Source: a virus. Taken from it: a stretch of DNA of 25,226 bases. Shown one piece after another: positions 1,748 to 25,148 of the stretch. A program made the translations under genes and the position numbers. Location of the stretch: IMG/VR virus record IMGVR_UViG_3300025423_000082, positions 1-25,226 of that record; one strand, written 5' to 3'. Position 1 is the stretch's first letter; every line of letters starts with the position of its first letter. The notes below the pieces were generated by a model. The model had not been told where the DNA came from, searched no databases, and saw only the letters and a program-made list of their open reading frames with translations.

Positions 1748-4700
1748 ATGAGCAAACCCAAATACCCACATTCGCATGCCCATGAGATGGCCCGACTGAA
1801 CGCCATTAAGATGTTGGGTTTGCATGAGCACAATACAGCAGAAGATCGAGCGCGAGCTTTAGGCTATAACCTTGATGAAAAGCTTTATCACGGTACAAAC
1901 AGCGAGTTTCCTGCTTTCGAAAAGCATCCACGCTATGGCGCAGGAACATATGCCACAGAAGACCCAGAGATTGCCGATATCTATGCAGAGAGTGAGCGTC
2001 GTGAAGGTAATGCCGCGCCCAATGTGTTACCGATTGTGGCAAGAGGTCGCAAGCTCACAGTATCAGACTTGCACCCAGAAGACCCACACTCTGGTGGATG
2101 GTTCAGAGAGAACATGGCTAAGGCGACTGGTATGCCCAAGACTCGTCGCATGGAAGAAAATTTGCCACACCATGGATATGACCGACTACAAATCAATGAC
2201 ATGTCTGACTTGGGTGGTGTGCAGACACAGCACATGTTTCCCGATCCATCTGTAATTCGATCTCGGTTCGCGGCTTTTGATCCCCATAGAGTTCATGAGA
2301 ACGATCTACTCGCCGCCAAAGGTGGAATCGTATCAATGTTGCGTAAGCATGGACGCCCAGTAGATAACGATCTAGATGCTATGCGTAAGATGAGCAATGG
2401 TCATAGAGTATTTATAGCGCATGAGCAAGATGAGATGCCGACTGAGATACACCGTGTAGCAGACATGCATGGCTACACACCTGATCAAATTTATACAATT
2501 GCTCCTGAGCACTTCATTCAACGCAAAGCCGAAGGAGGCACAATGAATCAACCATCACTAGCGCAGATGCGCGTCAATCTGGCACAGCACAGAAACCCAG
2601 ACCTCATGGACAGCATCGGCGTAAATGAAGCTGTGGACATGCAACCCAAAATGTTCATCAACCCCAACCCCAAGCCTATTGGTGGTATCCCATCTATTGG
2701 TGGCGTATCAACCAAAAATGGCATGCCAATTGGTGGCGTGGATGTAAACCCACAACAGCCGGGCCAACAACTCAACCCACAACCTCCGCAAATGCCCGGT
2801 CAGCCTCAGCCCGGTCAACCGGGAGCATCCGGCGCCGCTCCTGCACCCGGTGGCGCGCCCACAGGCCCAAGCGGTGGAGCTCCTGCGCAGATGGGCAACA
2901 TGCTCCAAATGACGCCTCAAGGCCAAGCTTTGGCGGCTATGGGAGGAGGAACAACTCAGCAACCACAACAATTAGCAAATGGTGGTATGGCTAATGGTGG
3001 ACAAAAGCCAAAAAAACTTACTGTTGAAGAAATGAAAAGAGCTATATTTGAAAAAGCTCAAAAGGGATTACAAAAAGCATCAGAAGTTTTAGGAAAACAT
3101 GAAGGATCAAATATTTTTTTGACTGAAGCTGATCGTGCTAAAGTAGAAAAGAAAAAAAATGGAATGAGGGGCGGTGTTGGATTCTCTCAAATCGGCTTAG
3201 AAGATCCTGATTACGCAGGTAGAACATGGGGTGTTGGCAAGTCTGGAACAGCAATTAAATTATTGAACCGCCAAAATAAAAGAGCGCCAGAGGGTAATGC
3301 CATTTGGACAACATTTATTGGCACACCCGAAATGCATACATCTAATCAAATAGTTTTTGATAGGATGTACAAAAACTTTTTACAAGCAAAAAAAGCGGGT
3401 TTGTTGAGTCCTGAAAAAGAAGCTGAGATGTTAGATATTATGAGATCAGCTATGACAAGGGGTACAGAAAAAAAACCATCTCAAGCTATTTTTAAACCAA
3501 ATGCTAACTTTGATGATAATGATTTGTTTAATACATTTGAAAAAAGACGCATCTTATCTGATTTAATGTCAGGTAAAAAAATAGGTGGAAAAAAAGCTCA
3601 AATATTTGACGCATCTAAAATGATTGAAGATACAACCGATCCAAAGTTACTTCATGCTCCAACTTTATCGGTGGGCCCGCATGTATTCACATTTAATGGT
3701 GAGACATCACATGAACCACATTTAAATCAAGCGTTCCCGTTTATGTTACATGGCGAGACAAGCCCTGATGCATTTCAACAAGTTCCATTCAAAACATTTG
3801 CAGAAGATTTTACTAATCAAATAAAACAAACCAAAGGTAGGGATCCCGGCTACATGGATATTGTGCGTAATATTCCAAGTCAATTCTTATCTGAAAAGTA
3901 CTTAACAAATTTACAAAAACAAGGTTACGAAGAAGGCGGTAATGTAAAACTTCACGAAGACATTGAAATGGCCTCAGGTGGTGCAATGCGCTTAGAACTC
4001 CTTAAAAAGAAAGCCCGTGACGCTTTCCCTCACATGAACGATGGTGGTCAACCACCCAAGCGCCGTGTATTCAACATCATGCCTGCGACCCAAGGAGCAG
4101 TGAAAACCCCTAATGGATTCACGCCCTATGATGCCAGTAACCCAACCATTGCTAGTCTGGCTCGCGCCTTTGATGAGGCGATTGCCCATCACTTAGCTCT
4201 TCCTTCACATAACCGCATGATGAACAGCGTGAGAGCCGCTGAGATGGTGTCCAACCATGTGGGCCGAACAGGTGATAACAAGCCTAAAGATTTGCTCGGC
4301 AAGAACGCCAAGCTCATCAAGTCTGAAAAGGGCGGCGAGGAGGCTATCAAGCTTCCTGATAATCGAGGTGTCGAGACGACTGGTCTGGCACTGGCTCCTG
4401 CGTTTGTTCAGGGCAAGTTCAACACCTGCCCCAACTCAGCATCATGTAAAGCAGAATGCTTAGGCAAGACCTCAGGCAATTACTTCAAACTTGGCGGTGG
4501 CACCAACCTCGAAGAGTTCAAGGGCCCACGCTTGAACAGCTTGAACAAGACCTTGGCGATGATCAACGACCCTCACTCTTTTGCTGTCAAGCTCTATGAT
4601 GAAATTCAAGACGCCAAAGCGATTGCGGCACAAAACAACAACCACTTGGGTGTGCGCCTCAATGTGCTGTCGGATCTCAATCCACGAGTCCACAAGGCCA

Positions 4701-5275
4701 TCATCAACGGTCACCCTGATGTGACCTTCTATGACTACACCAAGAACAACACCAACCCTATCGCGCCCAACCACCACTACACTTACTCAAGCACTGGCGT
4801 GAGCGACCAAGATATTCACAACCCCAATAGCAATTGGAAACAGATGCGCCGTCGGTTGGAGGGTGGTGACAATGTGGCAATGGCCTTCACACACAATGAG
4901 CACCTGCCCCACCAGATCGTTGATCACGAGACTGGCAAAGTATTCAAGGTCATCAATGGTGACAGCCATGACTTCCGACCACTGGACATTCAACCTGAGG
5001 GCGAGCATGGCGTGATTGTGGGCTTGAAGAACAAGAAAGCCATTGGTGAAAAAGGCAACGCTCACATTGACTCGAACGGCTTTTTTGTGAAGTACGATCC
5101 ACAGTTGATGAAGAAAGAAAACGGCAGGTATTCTCGTGTACCGACCACTGAAATATCAGCAAAGACCGGCAAGCCCAAATTGGGTGAGACAATACCGCAG
5201 AACAGGACGGTGCATATTCATCCACAAAGTCCTGCACCCAGAGAAAAATCAAATGACGAAGGATGGGAAGTATGA
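1748..5275 (+). CDS. Multidomain protein: ADP-ribosyltransferase-like N-terminus and gp88/DUF7227-like C-terminus
   Basis: An 1175-aa mosaic protein. Residues about 30-190 look like the ADP-ribosyltransferase domain common in phage polyvalent proteins: YHGT (47-50), GAGTYATEDP (64-73) and the closing DPSVIRSRFAAFDP (166-179). A short domain around VFIAHEQDEMP (221-231) follows. Residues about 296-400 are a Pro/Gln/Gly linker. Residues about 420-727 form an unassigned domain coded by AT-rich DNA. Residues about 770-1110 resemble the phage gp88/DUF7227 family, with Cys894, Cys900 and Cys904 (CX5CX3C), RLNVLSD (970-976) and FYDYTK (994-999). Gly-Gly motifs (263, 412, 417, 730, 744, 766) lie between domains. 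It sits between terL and portal, so it could be a virion or injected protein; this is inference. The Shine-Dalgarno (AGGA, 10 bases from the ATG) is weak. The start is supported by the ART-type N-terminus being complete. Confidence 0.7.
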   Translation: MSKPKYPHSHAHEMARLNAIKMLGLHEHNTAEDRARALGYNLDEKLYHGTNSEFPAFEKHPRYGAGTYATEDPEIADIYAESERREGNAAPNVLPIVARGRKLTVSDLHPEDPHSGGWFRENMAKATGMPKTRRMEENLPHHGYDRLQINDMSDLGGVQTQHMFPDPSVIRSRFAAFDPHRVHENDLLAAKGGIVSMLRKHGRPVDNDLDAMRKMSNGHRVFIAHEQDEMPTEIHRVADMHGYTPDQIYTIAPEHFIQRKAEGGTMNQPSLAQMRVNLAQHRNPDLMDSIGVNEAVDMQPKMFINPNPKPIGGIPSIGGVSTKNGMPIGGVDVNPQQPGQQLNPQPPQMPGQPQPGQPGASGAAPAPGGAPTGPSGGAPAQMGNMLQMTPQGQALAAMGGGTTQQPQQLANGGMANGGQKPKKLTVEEMKRAIFEKAQKGLQKASEVLGKHEGSNIFLTEADRAKVEKKKNGMRGGVGFSQIGLEDPDYAGRTWGVGKSGTAIKLLNRQNKRAPEGNAIWTTFIGTPEMHTSNQIVFDRMYKNFLQAKKAGLLSPEKEAEMLDIMRSAMTRGTEKKPSQAIFKPNANFDDNDLFNTFEKRRILSDLMSGKKIGGKKAQIFDASKMIEDTTDPKLLHAPTLSVGPHVFTFNGETSHEPHLNQAFPFMLHGETSPDAFQQVPFKTFAEDFTNQIKQTKGRDPGYMDIVRNIPSQFLSEKYLTNLQKQGYEEGGNVKLHEDIEMASGGAMRLELLKKKARDAFPHMNDGGQPPKRRVFNIMPATQGAVKTPNGFTPYDASNPTIASLARAFDEAIAHHLALPSHNRMMNSVRAAEMVSNHVGRTGDNKPKDLLGKNAKLIKSEKGGEEAIKLPDNRGVETTGLALAPAFVQGKFNTCPNSASCKAECLGKTSGNYFKLGGGTNLEEFKGPRLNSLNKTLAMINDPHSFAVKLYDEIQDAKAIAAQNNNHLGVRLNVLSDLNPRVHKAIINGHPDVTFYDYTKNNTNPIAPNHHYTYSSTGVSDQDIHNPNSNWKQMRRRLEGGDNVAMAFTHNEHLPHQIVDHETGKVFKVINGDSHDFRPLDIQPEGEHGVIVGLKNKKAIGEKGNAHIDSNGFFVKYDPQLMKKENGRYSRVPTTEISAKTGKPKLGETIPQNRTVHIHPQSPAPREKSNDEGWEV
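2980..3950. other. AT-rich mosaic segment inside the 1175-aa gene
   Basis: Within the gene at 1748-5275 the base composition changes sharply. From about 2980 to 3950 the sequence is rich in A-runs and AAA/TTA/ATT codons, while both flanks use GC-balanced codons like the rest of the window. The segment codes for residues about 411-735, the whole unassigned central domain, and is bounded on both sides by Gly-Gly motifs. This looks like a domain acquired by recombination between the linker and the C-terminal domain. Limits were estimated by eye. Confidence 0.6.
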
Positions 5276-12941: not shown

Positions 12942-14720
12942 ATGTCTGAATTTAAACCAATGGTGAAGATGTACACCGATGAGCCTTCAGTATCACTGAA
13001 ACTCAAAAAAGGTGGCAAAGTCAAAGCCAAGCACCACAAAGAGCATTCTGAGCATGGTCACAAAGCTATGCAACACCATGCAATGGGTGGTATGCATAAA
13101 GCTTTTGAATCTGAGGCCGGTAAGGCTCCTAAAAAGCCTTCCATGATGGCTCGTGTGAAAGCAATGAACCCCCAGATGTACAAGAAGGGTGGCAAAGTTG
13201 CTCACAAGGTTATGGGCGGTGCTATGGCCCCCGGCGCGGCAGGTATGCCTGCAGGCGGCATGGGCATGCAACCTATGGGTCAAGCGGCTTTGGGTCAAAT
13301 GACTCCTCAGCAACGCATGCAACGCGCCATGATGGTCAAGAAAGCTCTTGGCGGCATGAAAAAGGGCGGTTCTGCAGATCACAAGATGATCGAGAAGCTC
13401 GAAAAAGAATTGCACCACCACGAGTCTTTGGACATGGCACATGCTCACCACAAAAAGCATGGTGGCATGGCTCACCACGCTCACGGTGGCAAAGTTCATA
13501 AGACTTCTGGTCATCCTGAGGGCTCTATGGAGCACCACAAAGCCATGTGCAAGCACTACGAAAAGATGTGCAAGGCTGATGGCGGTTCTGCACACGCTCG
13601 CAAGATGCTTAAGCATCACAAAGCAATGTGCATGGGCGGTAGCTATGCATCTGGCGGTGAAATTGATCGCGACGAAACCAAAACCACTGTTGAAGGCAAC
13701 GCAAAACGCTTTGTCAACAATATCCACGACGGTGAGCACCACGATCACACCAGTGGCAAGACTGGTGATGTTAAGTTGGGCAAAGCCGCAGGCTACAAAC
13801 GCGGTGGTCGCACTCATCGTTTTGCTGAAGGCGGTTCTACTGGAAACACTATTCCTAGTGACTCCAAAAAGAGCATGAACTCTGGCAAGATCAGCTTGGG
13901 TGGCACCATTGAAGGCAATGAGCACTATTACGAAAACACTGACATGCACACTGCAGACAAGTTTAGCGGCTCTAAAGCCACTGGCGGCGTTCGCATGAGC
14001 AATGCAGGTGGTTTCAAACATGGTGGCAAGGCTCATCACAAGATGCACCACAAGGCTGACGGCGGCGCAATCGACAAGTACGAGACACGCGACACCGTTG
14101 AAGGCGGCAATTGGGAAAACCGTCCTGCTGATACCACTCCTAAAGGCAAAACCAATACCAAAACTGGTGATGTGAAGCTTGCTAATGGTGGTGGCTATAA
14201 GCATGGAGGGCATGCCTCAAAAAAAGCCTACGCCACAGGGGGTAATGTGAATGCTATGGGCAAGCCAGTGGCTATGCCTAAGCATTTCATTAGCAAACCT
14301 GTGGCAAACAGCTTGCAATCTGGCACCTTTGCAAGGGGCGGTAAGGTTGAAAAAGAGGAGAAACCAAATCTTCGCCTCATCAAGACTCATACCGGCCCTC
14401 AAGGCCATGTAGCCAAAGTTTACAAAGACAAAGACTGGGGTGAGTACAGAACCAAGTTCTACTCTCCTGAAGGTAAGCATTTACATGAATCTGATTCCCA
14501 TACGGATGATGCTGAAGATGCTCACATGACAGCCATGCACGAAGTAAACAAAGGTTATGCCAAAGGTGGAAAAGCCGCATTATTGGGTGGATTAGGCAAA
14601 AAAATTATGTCCGATATGCCAAAAATGATGGGCTCTATGGAAGGCAAGCCGCCAAAAGGTAGCGTCACAAAGACAATCACATCTGTGACTATGTCTCCTG
14701 TGAAAAAGCGCAAAGGCTAA
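12942..14720 (+). CDS. Large His- and Gly-Gly-rich repeat protein (592 aa)
   Basis: No known family is recognised. The protein is built from a short motif, [aromatic or Ala]-[Lys/Asp/His]-Gly-Gly-[Lys/Ser/Gly/Ala], that occurs about 26 times, mixed with some 50 histidines and many lysines (for example HAHHKKHGGMAHHAHGGK at 167-184). Residues 245-434 hold three degenerate repeats ending in GYK.GG. A short section at about 475-535 (AKVYKDKDWGEYRTKFYSPE, then HTDDAEDAH) looks like a small folded domain. The N- and C-termini are basic. It is probably positively charged and largely disordered, so it could bind DNA, metal or the inside of the capsid; a role as an internal or injected virion protein is a guess. 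It follows a structural gene at 12 bases with TAGGAGG and ends before a hairpin at 14735. Confidence 0.65.
   Translation: MSEFKPMVKMYTDEPSVSLKLKKGGKVKAKHHKEHSEHGHKAMQHHAMGGMHKAFESEAGKAPKKPSMMARVKAMNPQMYKKGGKVAHKVMGGAMAPGAAGMPAGGMGMQPMGQAALGQMTPQQRMQRAMMVKKALGGMKKGGSADHKMIEKLEKELHHHESLDMAHAHHKKHGGMAHHAHGGKVHKTSGHPEGSMEHHKAMCKHYEKMCKADGGSAHARKMLKHHKAMCMGGSYASGGEIDRDETKTTVEGNAKRFVNNIHDGEHHDHTSGKTGDVKLGKAAGYKRGGRTHRFAEGGSTGNTIPSDSKKSMNSGKISLGGTIEGNEHYYENTDMHTADKFSGSKATGGVRMSNAGGFKHGGKAHHKMHHKADGGAIDKYETRDTVEGGNWENRPADTTPKGKTNTKTGDVKLANGGGYKHGGHASKKAYATGGNVNAMGKPVAMPKHFISKPVANSLQSGTFARGGKVEKEEKPNLRLIKTHTGPQGHVAKVYKDKDWGEYRTKFYSPEGKHLHESDSHTDDAEDAHMTAMHEVNKGYAKGGKAALLGGLGKKIMSDMPKMMGSMEGKPPKGSVTKTITSVTMSPVKKRKG
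13674..14243 (+). repeat. Three degenerate repeats of about 55 codons in the 592-aa gene
   Basis: Residues 245-299, 318-375 and 383-434 share the order T(V/I)EGN - polar stretch - (T)GDVKL or GGVRMSN - GY/GFK.GG - .GG. Units 1 and 3 keep TGDVKL followed by GYKxGG; unit 2 has GGVRMSNAGGFKHGG. Spacing and length vary, so the copies are old rather than fresh duplications. Confidence 0.6.
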
Positions 14721-23254: not shown

Positions 23255-23467
23255 ATGGAAACTCATGAGTTAGCGACTAAAACGGACAAACAGCTAAATG
23301 TTCACGAGGCTGTATGTGCCGAGAGGTATGCAGACATATCACGCCAACTTAAAGAGGGCGACAAGCGTATGAACAAGATAGAGTACATGCTCTATGTTGT
23401 TATTATTCTTGTCTTGTTTGGGCCCGGTGTTGCCGCTGAATTTGTCAAAAAACTAATAGGAATTTAA
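23255..23467 (+). CDS. Small membrane protein with C-terminal transmembrane segment (70 aa)
   Basis: The N-terminal 45 residues are a charged helix (NVHEAVCAERYADISRQLKE, then DKRMNKIE), followed by one strong hydrophobic segment YMLYVVIILVLFGPGVAAEF (residues 44-63) and a KK end. The single span and cytoplasmic coiled coil fit small phage membrane proteins of the lysis region. No true Shine-Dalgarno is visible (TTGG only), and a second in-frame ATG lies 9 bases in. It is one step from the frameshift gene. A holin accessory or antiholin role is possible but not shown. Confidence 0.65.
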   Translation: METHELATKTDKQLNVHEAVCAERYADISRQLKEGDKRMNKIEYMLYVVIILVLFGPGVAAEFVKKLIGI

Positions 23468-23926
23468 ATGGATCCGTTTACTCTTGCGATGATGGCTCTT
23501 GGGGCAGTCAAGTCAGGAGTAGCTTTTTACAAAGAAGCAAAGTCCGTTGGAAAAGAAGCCTCCGAAGTTATTCACGAGATAGCAGGAGGTCTTTCTTCTT
23601 TTTTTGAGCATCAAGATAAAGCTATTCAGGTTGCTGAAGAAAAGCAGAAAAACCCACCTAAGGGTAAATCTATTCAAGCTCAAGCGTTGGAAAATGTTTT
23701 GATGAAAAAGCGTTTGCAACAAGCTGAATACGATTTGCGACAAATGTTGATATATGAAGCTCCTCCTGAACTTGGAGCTTTGTGGACAGAGTTTGACGAA
23801 GAACGAAGAAAACTTTTAAAAGATAAAGCTAAGTACGACGCCGCTCAAAAAAAAAGGATGAACGAGAAAGGCGTGAACATGAGAAGTATGTTCAGAAGTG
23901 GCAATTTCGAATTGCAGTTTGCATAG
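23468..23926 (+). CDS. Helical phage protein; zero-frame product of a likely frameshift gene (152 aa)
   Basis: Starts at ATG with TAGGAATTTAA, directly after the previous stop. The product begins MDPFTLAMMALGAVKSGVAF, has charged helices (QALENVLMKKRLQQAEYDLR, ELGALWTEFDEERRKLLKD) and reaches nine A bases at 23847-23855. In frame 0 it then reads a short, unlike tail (RMNEKGVNMRSMFRSGNFEL) and stops. In frame -1 the charged helix continues and leads into a membrane span. Proteins of this type in other phages usually end in such a span (remembered), so the zero-frame tail is probably not the main product. Function unknown; its place before holin and endolysin suggests lysis or membrane work. 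Confidence 0.6.
   Translation: MDPFTLAMMALGAVKSGVAFYKEAKSVGKEASEVIHEIAGGLSSFFEHQDKAIQVAEEKQKNPPKGKSIQAQALENVLMKKRLQQAEYDLRQMLIYEAPPELGALWTEFDEERRKLLKDKAKYDAAQKKRMNEKGVNMRSMFRSGNFELQFA
23847..23855 (+). promoter_or_regulatory. Nine-A slippery run (-1 frameshift site)
   Basis: The zero-frame codons are CAA AAA AAA AGG, so bases 23848-23854 form the slippery heptamer A AAA AAA in the right register. A step back by one base gives AAG GAT GAA and joins the -1 frame. The -1 frame has a stop (TAA in AGC TAA) a little upstream, so fusion can occur only in a narrow window containing this run. No clear downstream stem or upstream Shine-Dalgarno-like stimulator was seen. A sequencing or assembly indel in the homopolymer is the rival explanation. 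Confidence 0.6.
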
Positions 23927-24111
23927 GAATTCTTGTTTTTTTTGTAACTTTTGCAGGATTGATGTACATGATTCATCAAGATTATTTAAGAAGAAGAGAA
24001 GGACAAGCGTGGTACAAGCAATATAAAGAAAGACATAATCAAGACACAAAAGAGTGGGAATGCTATAAAACATTCAGAGACACAGGTTATGTATTGAGTG
24101 ATTGTAATTAG
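23854..24111 (+). CDS. -1 frame extension with transmembrane segment (85 codons)
   Basis: No good independent start exists, and it is read as the C-terminal part of the gene at 23468. It begins KDERERREHEKYVQKWQFRI, which continues the charged helix, then has a strong membrane span (RIAVCIGILVFFVTFAGLMY), a basic segment (HQDYLRRREGQAWYKQYKER) and a tail with two Cys (EWECYKTF and SDCN). It ends at TAG 24109-24111, just before the AGGAG of the holin gene. The fusion would be 214 aa (129 from frame 0 and 85 from frame -1). Confidence 0.55.
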   Translation, partial: KDERERREHEKYVQKWQFRIAVCIGILVFFVTFAGLMYMIHQDYLRRREGQAWYKQYKERHNQDTKEWECYKTFRDTGYVLSDCN

Positions 24112-24120
24112 GAGAAAACA

Positions 24121-24618
24121 ATGAATTGGTTAGAACAGGTTGCACCAACAATTGCTACAGCACTAGGAGGGCCTTTAGCAGGTCTTGCGGTCGAGGCTGT
24201 CTCCAAAGCTCTTGGCGTTAGTGGTGATGAGGCCAAAAACATCCTAGACGAAGGCAAGATGTCTGCTGACCAAATCGCACAAGTTAAGGTTGCAGAACTT
24301 GAATTGCAAAAACAAGCTCAAGCTTTGGGTTTGAATTTTGAGCAATTAGCAGTTCAAGATCGTAGTTCTGCACGAGACATGCAAATTGCGACTAAGTCAT
24401 TTCTTGTACCTACCTTAGCAATCATTATTGTTGTGTCGTTTATTGGAGTTGTTGTAGGTACGATGATGGGGTTATCCCATATTGAGTCTGCAATGGCGGG
24501 CACTTTAGTGGGTTACCTTTCAGCTAAAGCTGAACAAGTGGTAGCTTTTTATTTTGGTTCATCCGCAGGTTCTCAGCGTAAGGACGAACTTTTACATCAA
24601 TCTACTCCTGTACCATGA
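24121..24618 (+). CDS. Putative holin (3-TM type, 165 aa)
   Basis: Small membrane protein that would open the inner membrane for the endolysin. An N-terminal hydrophobic, Gly/Ala-rich helix (TIATALGGPLAGLAVEAVSK) is followed by a cytoplasmic helical section with the family-typical LALxxxDRSSARDMQ-like pattern (DRSSAR at 80-85). Two strong transmembrane spans come at about 93-116 (FLVPTLAIIIVVSFIGVVVG) and 123-145, and the protein ends YFGSSAGSQRKDEL. This matches the three-TM holin family as I know it. The ATGA overlap with the endolysin gene supports the assignment. Ribosome-binding site AGGAG. Confidence 0.78.
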   Translation: MNWLEQVAPTIATALGGPLAGLAVEAVSKALGVSGDEAKNILDEGKMSADQIAQVKVAELELQKQAQALGLNFEQLAVQDRSSARDMQIATKSFLVPTLAIIIVVSFIGVVVGTMMGLSHIESAMAGTLVGYLSAKAEQVVAFYFGSSAGSQRKDELLHQSTPVP

Positions 24619-25148
24619 TAGAAAATTTTGAAAAATCTTTAGAATTAATTCTTGCTAGTGAAGGCGGTTTTCAAACGGAATCCGCTGATAGTGGCAATAA
24701 ATTGCCTGACGGTCGTGCAGGTTCTACTAATTTGGGCGTTACACAAGCCAATTGGGAGGCTTTTCTTGGACACCCTGTTACTTGGAATGACATGAAAGCT
24801 TTAACTTCTCAGACGGTCAGTCCTTTCTACAAAAAGAAATATTGGGACAAAGTCATGGGCGACGAGCTTCCTACTCCGGTCGATTTCATGATGTTTGACT
24901 TCGCCATCAACCATGGCGTAGGAGGCTGTGTAAAGGTCATGCAAGGCGTTGTTGGCGTTCCGATGGATGGTGGCATGGGCCCACAGACTTTAAACGCTAT
25001 AAAAGCAATTCCTGTTCAGCAGTTGATTCAGAAATTTTCAAATGCAAAAGAAGCGTATTACAAGAGTTTGAACAATCCTACTTACGAAAAAGGTTGGCTA
25101 AACCGAGTGGCAAAGGTAGAAAACGATGCTTTAAACATGATTGCTTAA
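24615..25148 (+). CDS. GH108 endolysin with peptidoglycan-binding domain (177 aa)
   Basis: Peptidoglycan hydrolase for host lysis. The N-terminal GH108 signature is LILASEGGF with the catalytic Glu16, followed by TNLGVTQANWEAFLG and PFYKKKYWDKVMGDELP, then VDFMMFDFAINHG. The C-terminal half (about 105-177) fits the PG_binding_3 domain (VGVPMDGGMGPQT, AYYKSLNNPTYEKGWLNRVA). There is no signal peptide, so export depends on the holin. It overlaps the holin gene by four bases. Full length for the family. Confidence 0.9.
   Translation: MIENFEKSLELILASEGGFQTESADSGNKLPDGRAGSTNLGVTQANWEAFLGHPVTWNDMKALTSQTVSPFYKKKYWDKVMGDELPTPVDFMMFDFAINHGVGGCVKVMQGVVGVPMDGGMGPQTLNAIKAIPVQQLIQKFSNAKEAYYKSLNNPTYEKGWLNRVAKVENDALNMIA

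What the first reader, a model, noticed from the sequence alone, without database searches (positions are those of the whole stretch)
23468..24111. Probable -1 frameshift gene at a nine-A run ahead of the lysis cassette
In frame 0 the protein ends soon after the A-run with an atypical tail. In frame -1 the charged helix continues (KDERERREHEKYVQKW) and leads to a membrane span and a basic, Cys-containing tail, with a stop exactly at the next gene's ribosome site. The A AAA AAA heptamer is in the correct register, so one gene could yield a soluble 152-aa and a membrane-bound 214-aa form. If real, it may be a two-product switch in lysis or host-membrane interaction.
Basis: partly seen in the sequence, partly recalled or inferred. 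Interest (0 to 1): 0.72.

Follow-up and report, generated by a model that had tools for sequence, protein, structure and literature searches.

The report
Conserved nine-A frameshift, phage lysis operon
In a group of environmental phages, a gene in the cell-bursting operon is split into two reading frames at a run of nine A's that is kept in 66 of 68 gene versions, so the phage probably makes a short protein without the anchor and, by slippage, a longer membrane-anchored one.

Summary
The A9 run (23847-23855) splits a gene into a 152-aa frame-0 product and a 214-aa -1 product that gains a membrane span and, in nearly all relatives, a two-Cys tail. An A run of nine or more is present in all 38 non-redundant relatives with the split layout. 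Among 68 distinct alleles with a run of nine or more, 66 have A9, one has A10 by substitution with the frames unchanged, and one has an A10 insertion that fuses the frames; none has A8 or A11. The -1 extension evolves under purifying selection as strong as the head (pN/pS about 0.3), while the frame-0 tail is unconstrained (1.0). Outgroup relatives encode head and membrane tail in one frame without the run, so the full-length protein is the family's canonical form. No Shine-Dalgarno-like element or downstream RNA structure accompanies the run, and no allele uses a shorter ribosomal slip site. This favours RNA-polymerase slippage over ribosomal slippage, without proving it. The gene sits between a small membrane protein and the holin/endolysin, and its -1 stop overlaps the holin ribosome site. 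The family has no known function; a lysis role is inferred from position.

The parts
23255..23467 (+). 70-aa small protein with a C-terminal membrane span, directly upstream (stop TAA abuts the next ATG)
   Evidence: ORF; a small C-terminal-TM protein precedes the gene in most relatives examined; a different-sequence counterpart in L044 matches phrog_1193 'hemolysin' at 3e-4
23468..23926 (+). frame-0 ORF, 152 aa: helical head plus an unconstrained tail after the run; 17.3 kDa, no strong membrane span
23847..23855 (+). A9 slippery run (heptamer A AAA AAA at 23848-23854)
23854..24111 (+). -1 frame extension, 85 codons plus TAG: charged helix, membrane span, tail with two Cys
   Evidence: open in all 38 non-redundant split loci (84-86 codons in the first set of relatives); pN/pS 0.32; co-linear with single-frame homologues
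23911..23973 (+). predicted membrane span (about residues 149-169 of the 214-aa form)
   Evidence: Kyte-Doolittle maximum 2.5 at residue 151; 2.3-3.0 in all 38 full-length forms
24061..24105 (+). Cys199 to Cys213 tail motif (ECYKxFxxTGYxxxxC)
   Evidence: both Cys present in 36 of 38 non-redundant full-length forms, absent in L115 and L116
24109..24120 (+). -1 stop TAG overlapping AGGAG, the probable ribosome site of the holin gene at 24121
   Evidence: sequence; next start within about 25 nt of the -1 stop in about 28 of 38 loci, counted by eye
24121..24618 (+). probable holin-type membrane protein, 165 aa (phrog_1544, function unknown)
   Evidence: syntenic cluster next to endolysins
24615..25148 (+). 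endolysin, GH108 plus peptidoglycan-binding domain

Best explanation
A lysis-operon membrane-protein gene is expressed through an evolutionarily maintained -1 shift at A9. Standard decoding gives a short head-only protein. A fraction of transcripts that gain one A by RNA-polymerase slippage (or ribosomes that slip -1 on A AAA AAA, or both) gives the 214-aa form, whose single continuous helix runs through the inner membrane to a short, probably periplasmic, Cys-containing end. Shown by comparison: the A9, the open and selected -1 frame, the single-frame homologues, the position. Inferred: that both products are made, that transcription rather than translation slips (about 0.55 against 0.38), that the ratio matters, and that ribosomes finishing in the -1 frame feed the holin ribosome site by translational coupling, so that the slip rate also tunes holin supply. 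The confidence given is for the maintained -1 shift giving the membrane-anchored form, not for the inferred steps.
For: A run of 9 or more in 38/38 non-redundant split loci; 66 A9 of 68 alleles with a run of 9 or more. Three wobble positions inside the run never vary, although AAG (314 vs 541 AAA) and CAG (117 vs 274 CAA) are common elsewhere in the same genes. One relative has A10 through G-to-A substitution, keeping the -1 relation. In one subclade the run is displaced one base relative to the codons but is still nine long. Selection: head pN/pS 0.27, -1 tail 0.32, frame-0 tail 1.00. Single-frame relatives L079/L080/L110-L114 and the distant family carry the same head-helix-membrane order in one ORF. 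The tree needs only three changes and the two in-frame states lie inside the A9 clade. The predicted fold of single-frame L036 is one helix over residues 100-191, spanning the shift point (mean pLDDT 68.5, about 90 at the membrane span). For polymerase slippage: no SD-like stimulator and no downstream structure (mean z 0.06); no A6G, A7 or A8 split versions; nine is the length at which selection against A/T runs appears in many bacteria, and Thermus dnaX uses A9 (PMC1088944). For selection on the split: an A10 insertion would fuse the frames, yet was seen in one allele of 68.
Against: No transcript, protein or read data. Unstimulated A AAA AAA can also shift ribosomes, and every A9 run contains an in-register heptamer, so the frame relation cannot separate the two mechanisms. 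The frame-0 tail is not conserved in sequence or length (about 130-177 aa in total), and single-frame relatives lack a short form, so a function for the short product is not shown. pN/pS values pool pairs related by descent. Assemblies give consensus sequences that could hide minority run lengths. Holin coupling is absent where the next gene starts about 175 nt or more downstream (e.g. L048, L053).
Confidence: 0.9

Rival explanations
1. Same programmed two-product gene, but the shift is purely ribosomal: -1 slippage on A AAA AAA without strong stimulators.
For: Heptamer in the correct register in every split locus; -1 ribosomal frameshifting is known for many phage and IS genes (PMC5009743; PMC4066793).
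Against: No SD-like element or downstream structure; ribosomal slippage needs only six or seven A's, so A6G or A7 versions would be expected among the split alleles, and none was seen.
Confidence: 0.38
2. Phase-variable (contingency) run: A9 is an OFF state and A10 an ON state, switched by replication slippage.
For: Homopolymers are mutable in general; one allele (L036/L240, one contig) is A10 and in frame.
Against: A phase-variable tract should show mixed A8/A9/A10; 66 of 68 are A9, and the only other split-state length is a substitution.
Confidence: 0.05
3. A frameshift mutation fixed by drift, with incidental slippage keeping a needed protein going; the short form has no role.
For: Single-frame relatives manage without the short form; frame-0 tail unconstrained.
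Against: A single A insertion would restore one frame, yet the split has been kept across the clade, with two in-frame states in the tree. Not exclusive with the best explanation: the origin may have been accidental and the maintenance selected.
Confidence: 0.2
4. Sequencing or assembly artefact, or a decayed gene.
For: Homopolymers are error-prone in some sequencing chemistries.
Against: Same run in 38 non-redundant loci from many separate metagenome assemblies, and a selected -1 frame.
Confidence: 0.01

Closest known systems
Citrobacter rodentium tssM1 (A11 transcriptional slippage; PMC4256274)
   Same: Poly-A run before an early stop; slippage restores a C-terminal part of an inner-membrane protein; two length forms, both and their ratio needed there.
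   Different: Type VI secretion gene, A11, one bacterium and a Yersinia relative; here A9 in a phage lysis operon, kept across a clade, and the membrane span itself is in the shifted part. No experiment here.
Thermus thermophilus dnaX (A9 transcriptional slippage; PMC1088944)
   Same: A9 run, long and short product from one gene.
   Different: There the unslipped mRNA gives the long form; here the unslipped gives the short form.
Shigella spa13/mxiE slippage (PMC5009743)
   Different: Type III secretion genes; coupling here is only inferred from the stop/ribosome-site overlap.
Lambda gpG/gpGT tail chaperone frameshift (PMC5009743)
   Same: Phage gene, -1 shift, C-terminal extension on a fraction of product.
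   Different: Ribosomal, in the tail assembly region; this gene lies after tail-fibre-type genes and before holin/endolysin.

Membership tests
Gene using programmed transcriptional slippage | A or T run long enough (about 9 or more) conserved at the frame junction | tested here: met
   66 A9 and 2 A10 among 68 alleles
Gene using programmed transcriptional slippage | Shifted frame under protein-level selection | tested here: met
   pN/pS 0.32, 0.10 in close pairs
Gene using programmed transcriptional slippage | Transcripts with non-templated A's | not testable with these tools
   no RNA data
-1 programmed ribosomal frameshift | X XXY YYZ heptamer in register | tested here: met
   A AAA AAA in every split locus
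-1 programmed ribosomal frameshift | Upstream SD-like and/or downstream structured stimulator | tested here: not met
   no AGGAGG-like element in most loci, mean folding z 0.06 over 60 nt downstream; pseudoknots not tested; some known cases lack stimulators, so this does not exclude membership
Phase-variable homopolymer locus | Run-length polymorphism among relatives | tested here: not met
   one in-frame insertion among 68 alleles
Known holin, spanin or endolysin family | Sequence or profile match | tested here: not met
   no Pfam family above cut-off; PHROGs matches only weak or to unknown-function families; no convincing PDB match
Phage lysis operon component | Co-located with holin/endolysin/Rz genes across relatives | tested here: met
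   location only, function not shown
Lambda G/GT-type tail chaperone | Lies before the tape-measure gene | tested here: not met
   lies directly before holin-type and endolysin genes

The most novel reading that the evidence does not exclude
RNA-polymerase slippage at a clade-wide A9 sets the ratio of a soluble to a membrane-anchored lysis-operon protein and, by translational coupling at the overlapping stop/ribosome site, also sets holin synthesis: a lysis-timing control based on transcription error rate.
Probability: 0.2. Interest if true: 0.8.

Novelty: new variant of a known kind. Interest (0 to 1): 0.55.

Why it matters
Frameshift two-product genes are well known in phage head and tail genes, and slippage in secretion and insertion-sequence genes. 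I found no report, in the five searches of the held open-access library, of one in a lysis operon of a tailed phage. The clade offers natural controls: A9 split genes, a single-frame sister group without the run, and one fused A10 allele. It also gives the reading frame of a common, unnamed phage membrane-protein family that a standard ORF call cuts short at the run.

Tried and rejected
Artefact: rejected by recurrence in 38 non-redundant loci. Independent start for the extension: no ATG/GTG/TTG upstream of the membrane span in the window; a few relatives do have an internal ATG or TTG 6-36 nt into the extension. Shine-Dalgarno-like stimulator and downstream hairpin: none consistent. Phase variation: run length uniform. 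Named family: Pfam, PHROGs, PDB sequence and BFVD fold searches gave no function; the best fold match is a 144-aa uncharacterised phage protein at 41% identity. Phage record collection: only distant homologues from Manatee Spring records. Literature searches for frameshifts in holin/spanin/endolysin contexts found nothing on this gene.

Full report
Observation. The window has nine A at 23847-23855 inside an ORF that starts at 23468. Frame 0 gives 152 aa. Shifting -1 at A AAA AAA (23848-23854) gives 214 aa, ending at TAG 24109-24111, which overlaps AGGAG ahead of the next start at 24121. In the window no ATG, GTG or TTG in the -1 frame precedes the membrane segment, so the extension is reached only through the upstream frame.

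Recurrence. A search with the frame-0 protein gave 35 relatives, a profile search 80 loci (some of them the same contigs), and further searches more. After removing sequences over 95% identical, 38 split loci remain, and every one has a run of nine or more at the same place with an open -1 frame. One has A10 because a G became A, which leaves the frames in the same relation. One subclade has the run displaced by one base but still nine long. Runs of nine or more A or T are otherwise almost absent: 3 elsewhere in 274 kb. Lysine AAG and glutamine CAG are common elsewhere in the same genes, so the invariant wobble positions inside the run are not codon bias.

Selection. Over 33 aligned loci, pooled pairwise pN/pS is 0.27 for the head and 0.32 for the part of the extension read in one frame only; the out-of-frame readings of the latter bases give 1.3 and 1.1. 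In the overlap the -1 frame gives 0.60 and frame 0 gives 1.00. In 44 close pairs the values are 0.10, 0.10, 0.39 and 1.17. The extension is therefore a selected protein sequence, and the tail of the short form is not detectably selected. Pairs are not independent, so these are descriptive values.

Single-frame relatives. L079, L080 and L110-L114 encode 214-215 aa in one frame with no run, at 41% identity to the window for L079; they keep the membrane span and the two-Cys end. A larger family (504 stretches matched; 228-276 aa in most of those read) has the same head, charged helix and membrane span in one frame. On the tree, A9 and single-frame states need three changes; the L079/L110 group and the fused L036 both lie inside the A9 clade. 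The tree cannot by itself tell gain from loss.

Anatomy. The model of L036, the fused relative, is all helix, with one helix from residue 100 to 191 that passes the shift point and the membrane span. Overall confidence is low (mean pLDDT 68.5, pTM 0.32) but about 90 at the span. The long form has a hydrophobic maximum of 2.3-3.0 in all 38 loci; short forms reach 1.0-1.6. Two Cys near the end are present in 36 of 38 and absent in L115 and L116. Placing the C-terminus in the periplasm is inference from the Cys pair and weak charge balance.

Context. Across relatives the order is commonly tail-fibre-type genes, a 55-80-aa membrane protein, this gene, a holin-type protein, then an endolysin of varying type (GH108, phage lysozyme, M15 peptidase, GH19) and in some loci an Rz-type spanin. 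The -1 stop lies within about 25 nt of the next start in about 28 of 38 loci (my count). In others, such as L048 and L053, the next gene begins about 175 nt or more downstream.

Mechanism. Transcriptional and ribosomal slippage both give this frame relation. For transcription: the run is nine or more in every split allele, the length at which selection against A/T runs is seen in many bacterial genomes (PMC1088944); shorter runs that would serve a ribosome were not seen; there is no SD-like element and folding downstream is no better than shuffled (mean z 0.06). Against: A AAA AAA can shift ribosomes alone, and pseudoknots were not tested. I put transcription at about 0.55, ribosome alone at about 0.38. 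The closest tested analogue is C. rodentium tssM1, where A11 slippage gives two forms of an inner-membrane protein and both are needed (PMC4256274).

Limits. No RNA, protein or read-level data; uncultured phages with unnamed hosts; function inferred from position; the short form may have no role.

Noticed in passing
L036:4380-4389 (same contig as L240): The only in-frame A10 allele in the A9 clade, close to A9 relatives on the tree; a real fused variant or an assembly error.
   Followed up: partly
window 1748-5275: 1175-aa ORF with a GP88 domain (PF17338) near its C-terminus, between terminase and the probable portal gene.
   Followed up: no
window 12942-14720: 592-aa ORF very rich in His, Lys and Gly with repeated short motifs; Lys/Gly-rich genes follow the lysis genes in L080 and L115.
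   Followed up: no
L115 and L116: Frame 0 stops within a few codons of the A9 run, and the extension lacks the two-Cys end, while the run and the membrane span are kept.
   Followed up: partly
window 24121-24618: The probable holin matches phrog_1544 (unknown function) strongly; the frameshift protein also matches it weakly (E 0.006), perhaps only through helix and membrane composition.
   Followed up: no
L108: One A9 copy lies on a contig binned as an uncultured Bacteroidetes genome; host assignment is uncertain, binning error possible.
   Followed up: no
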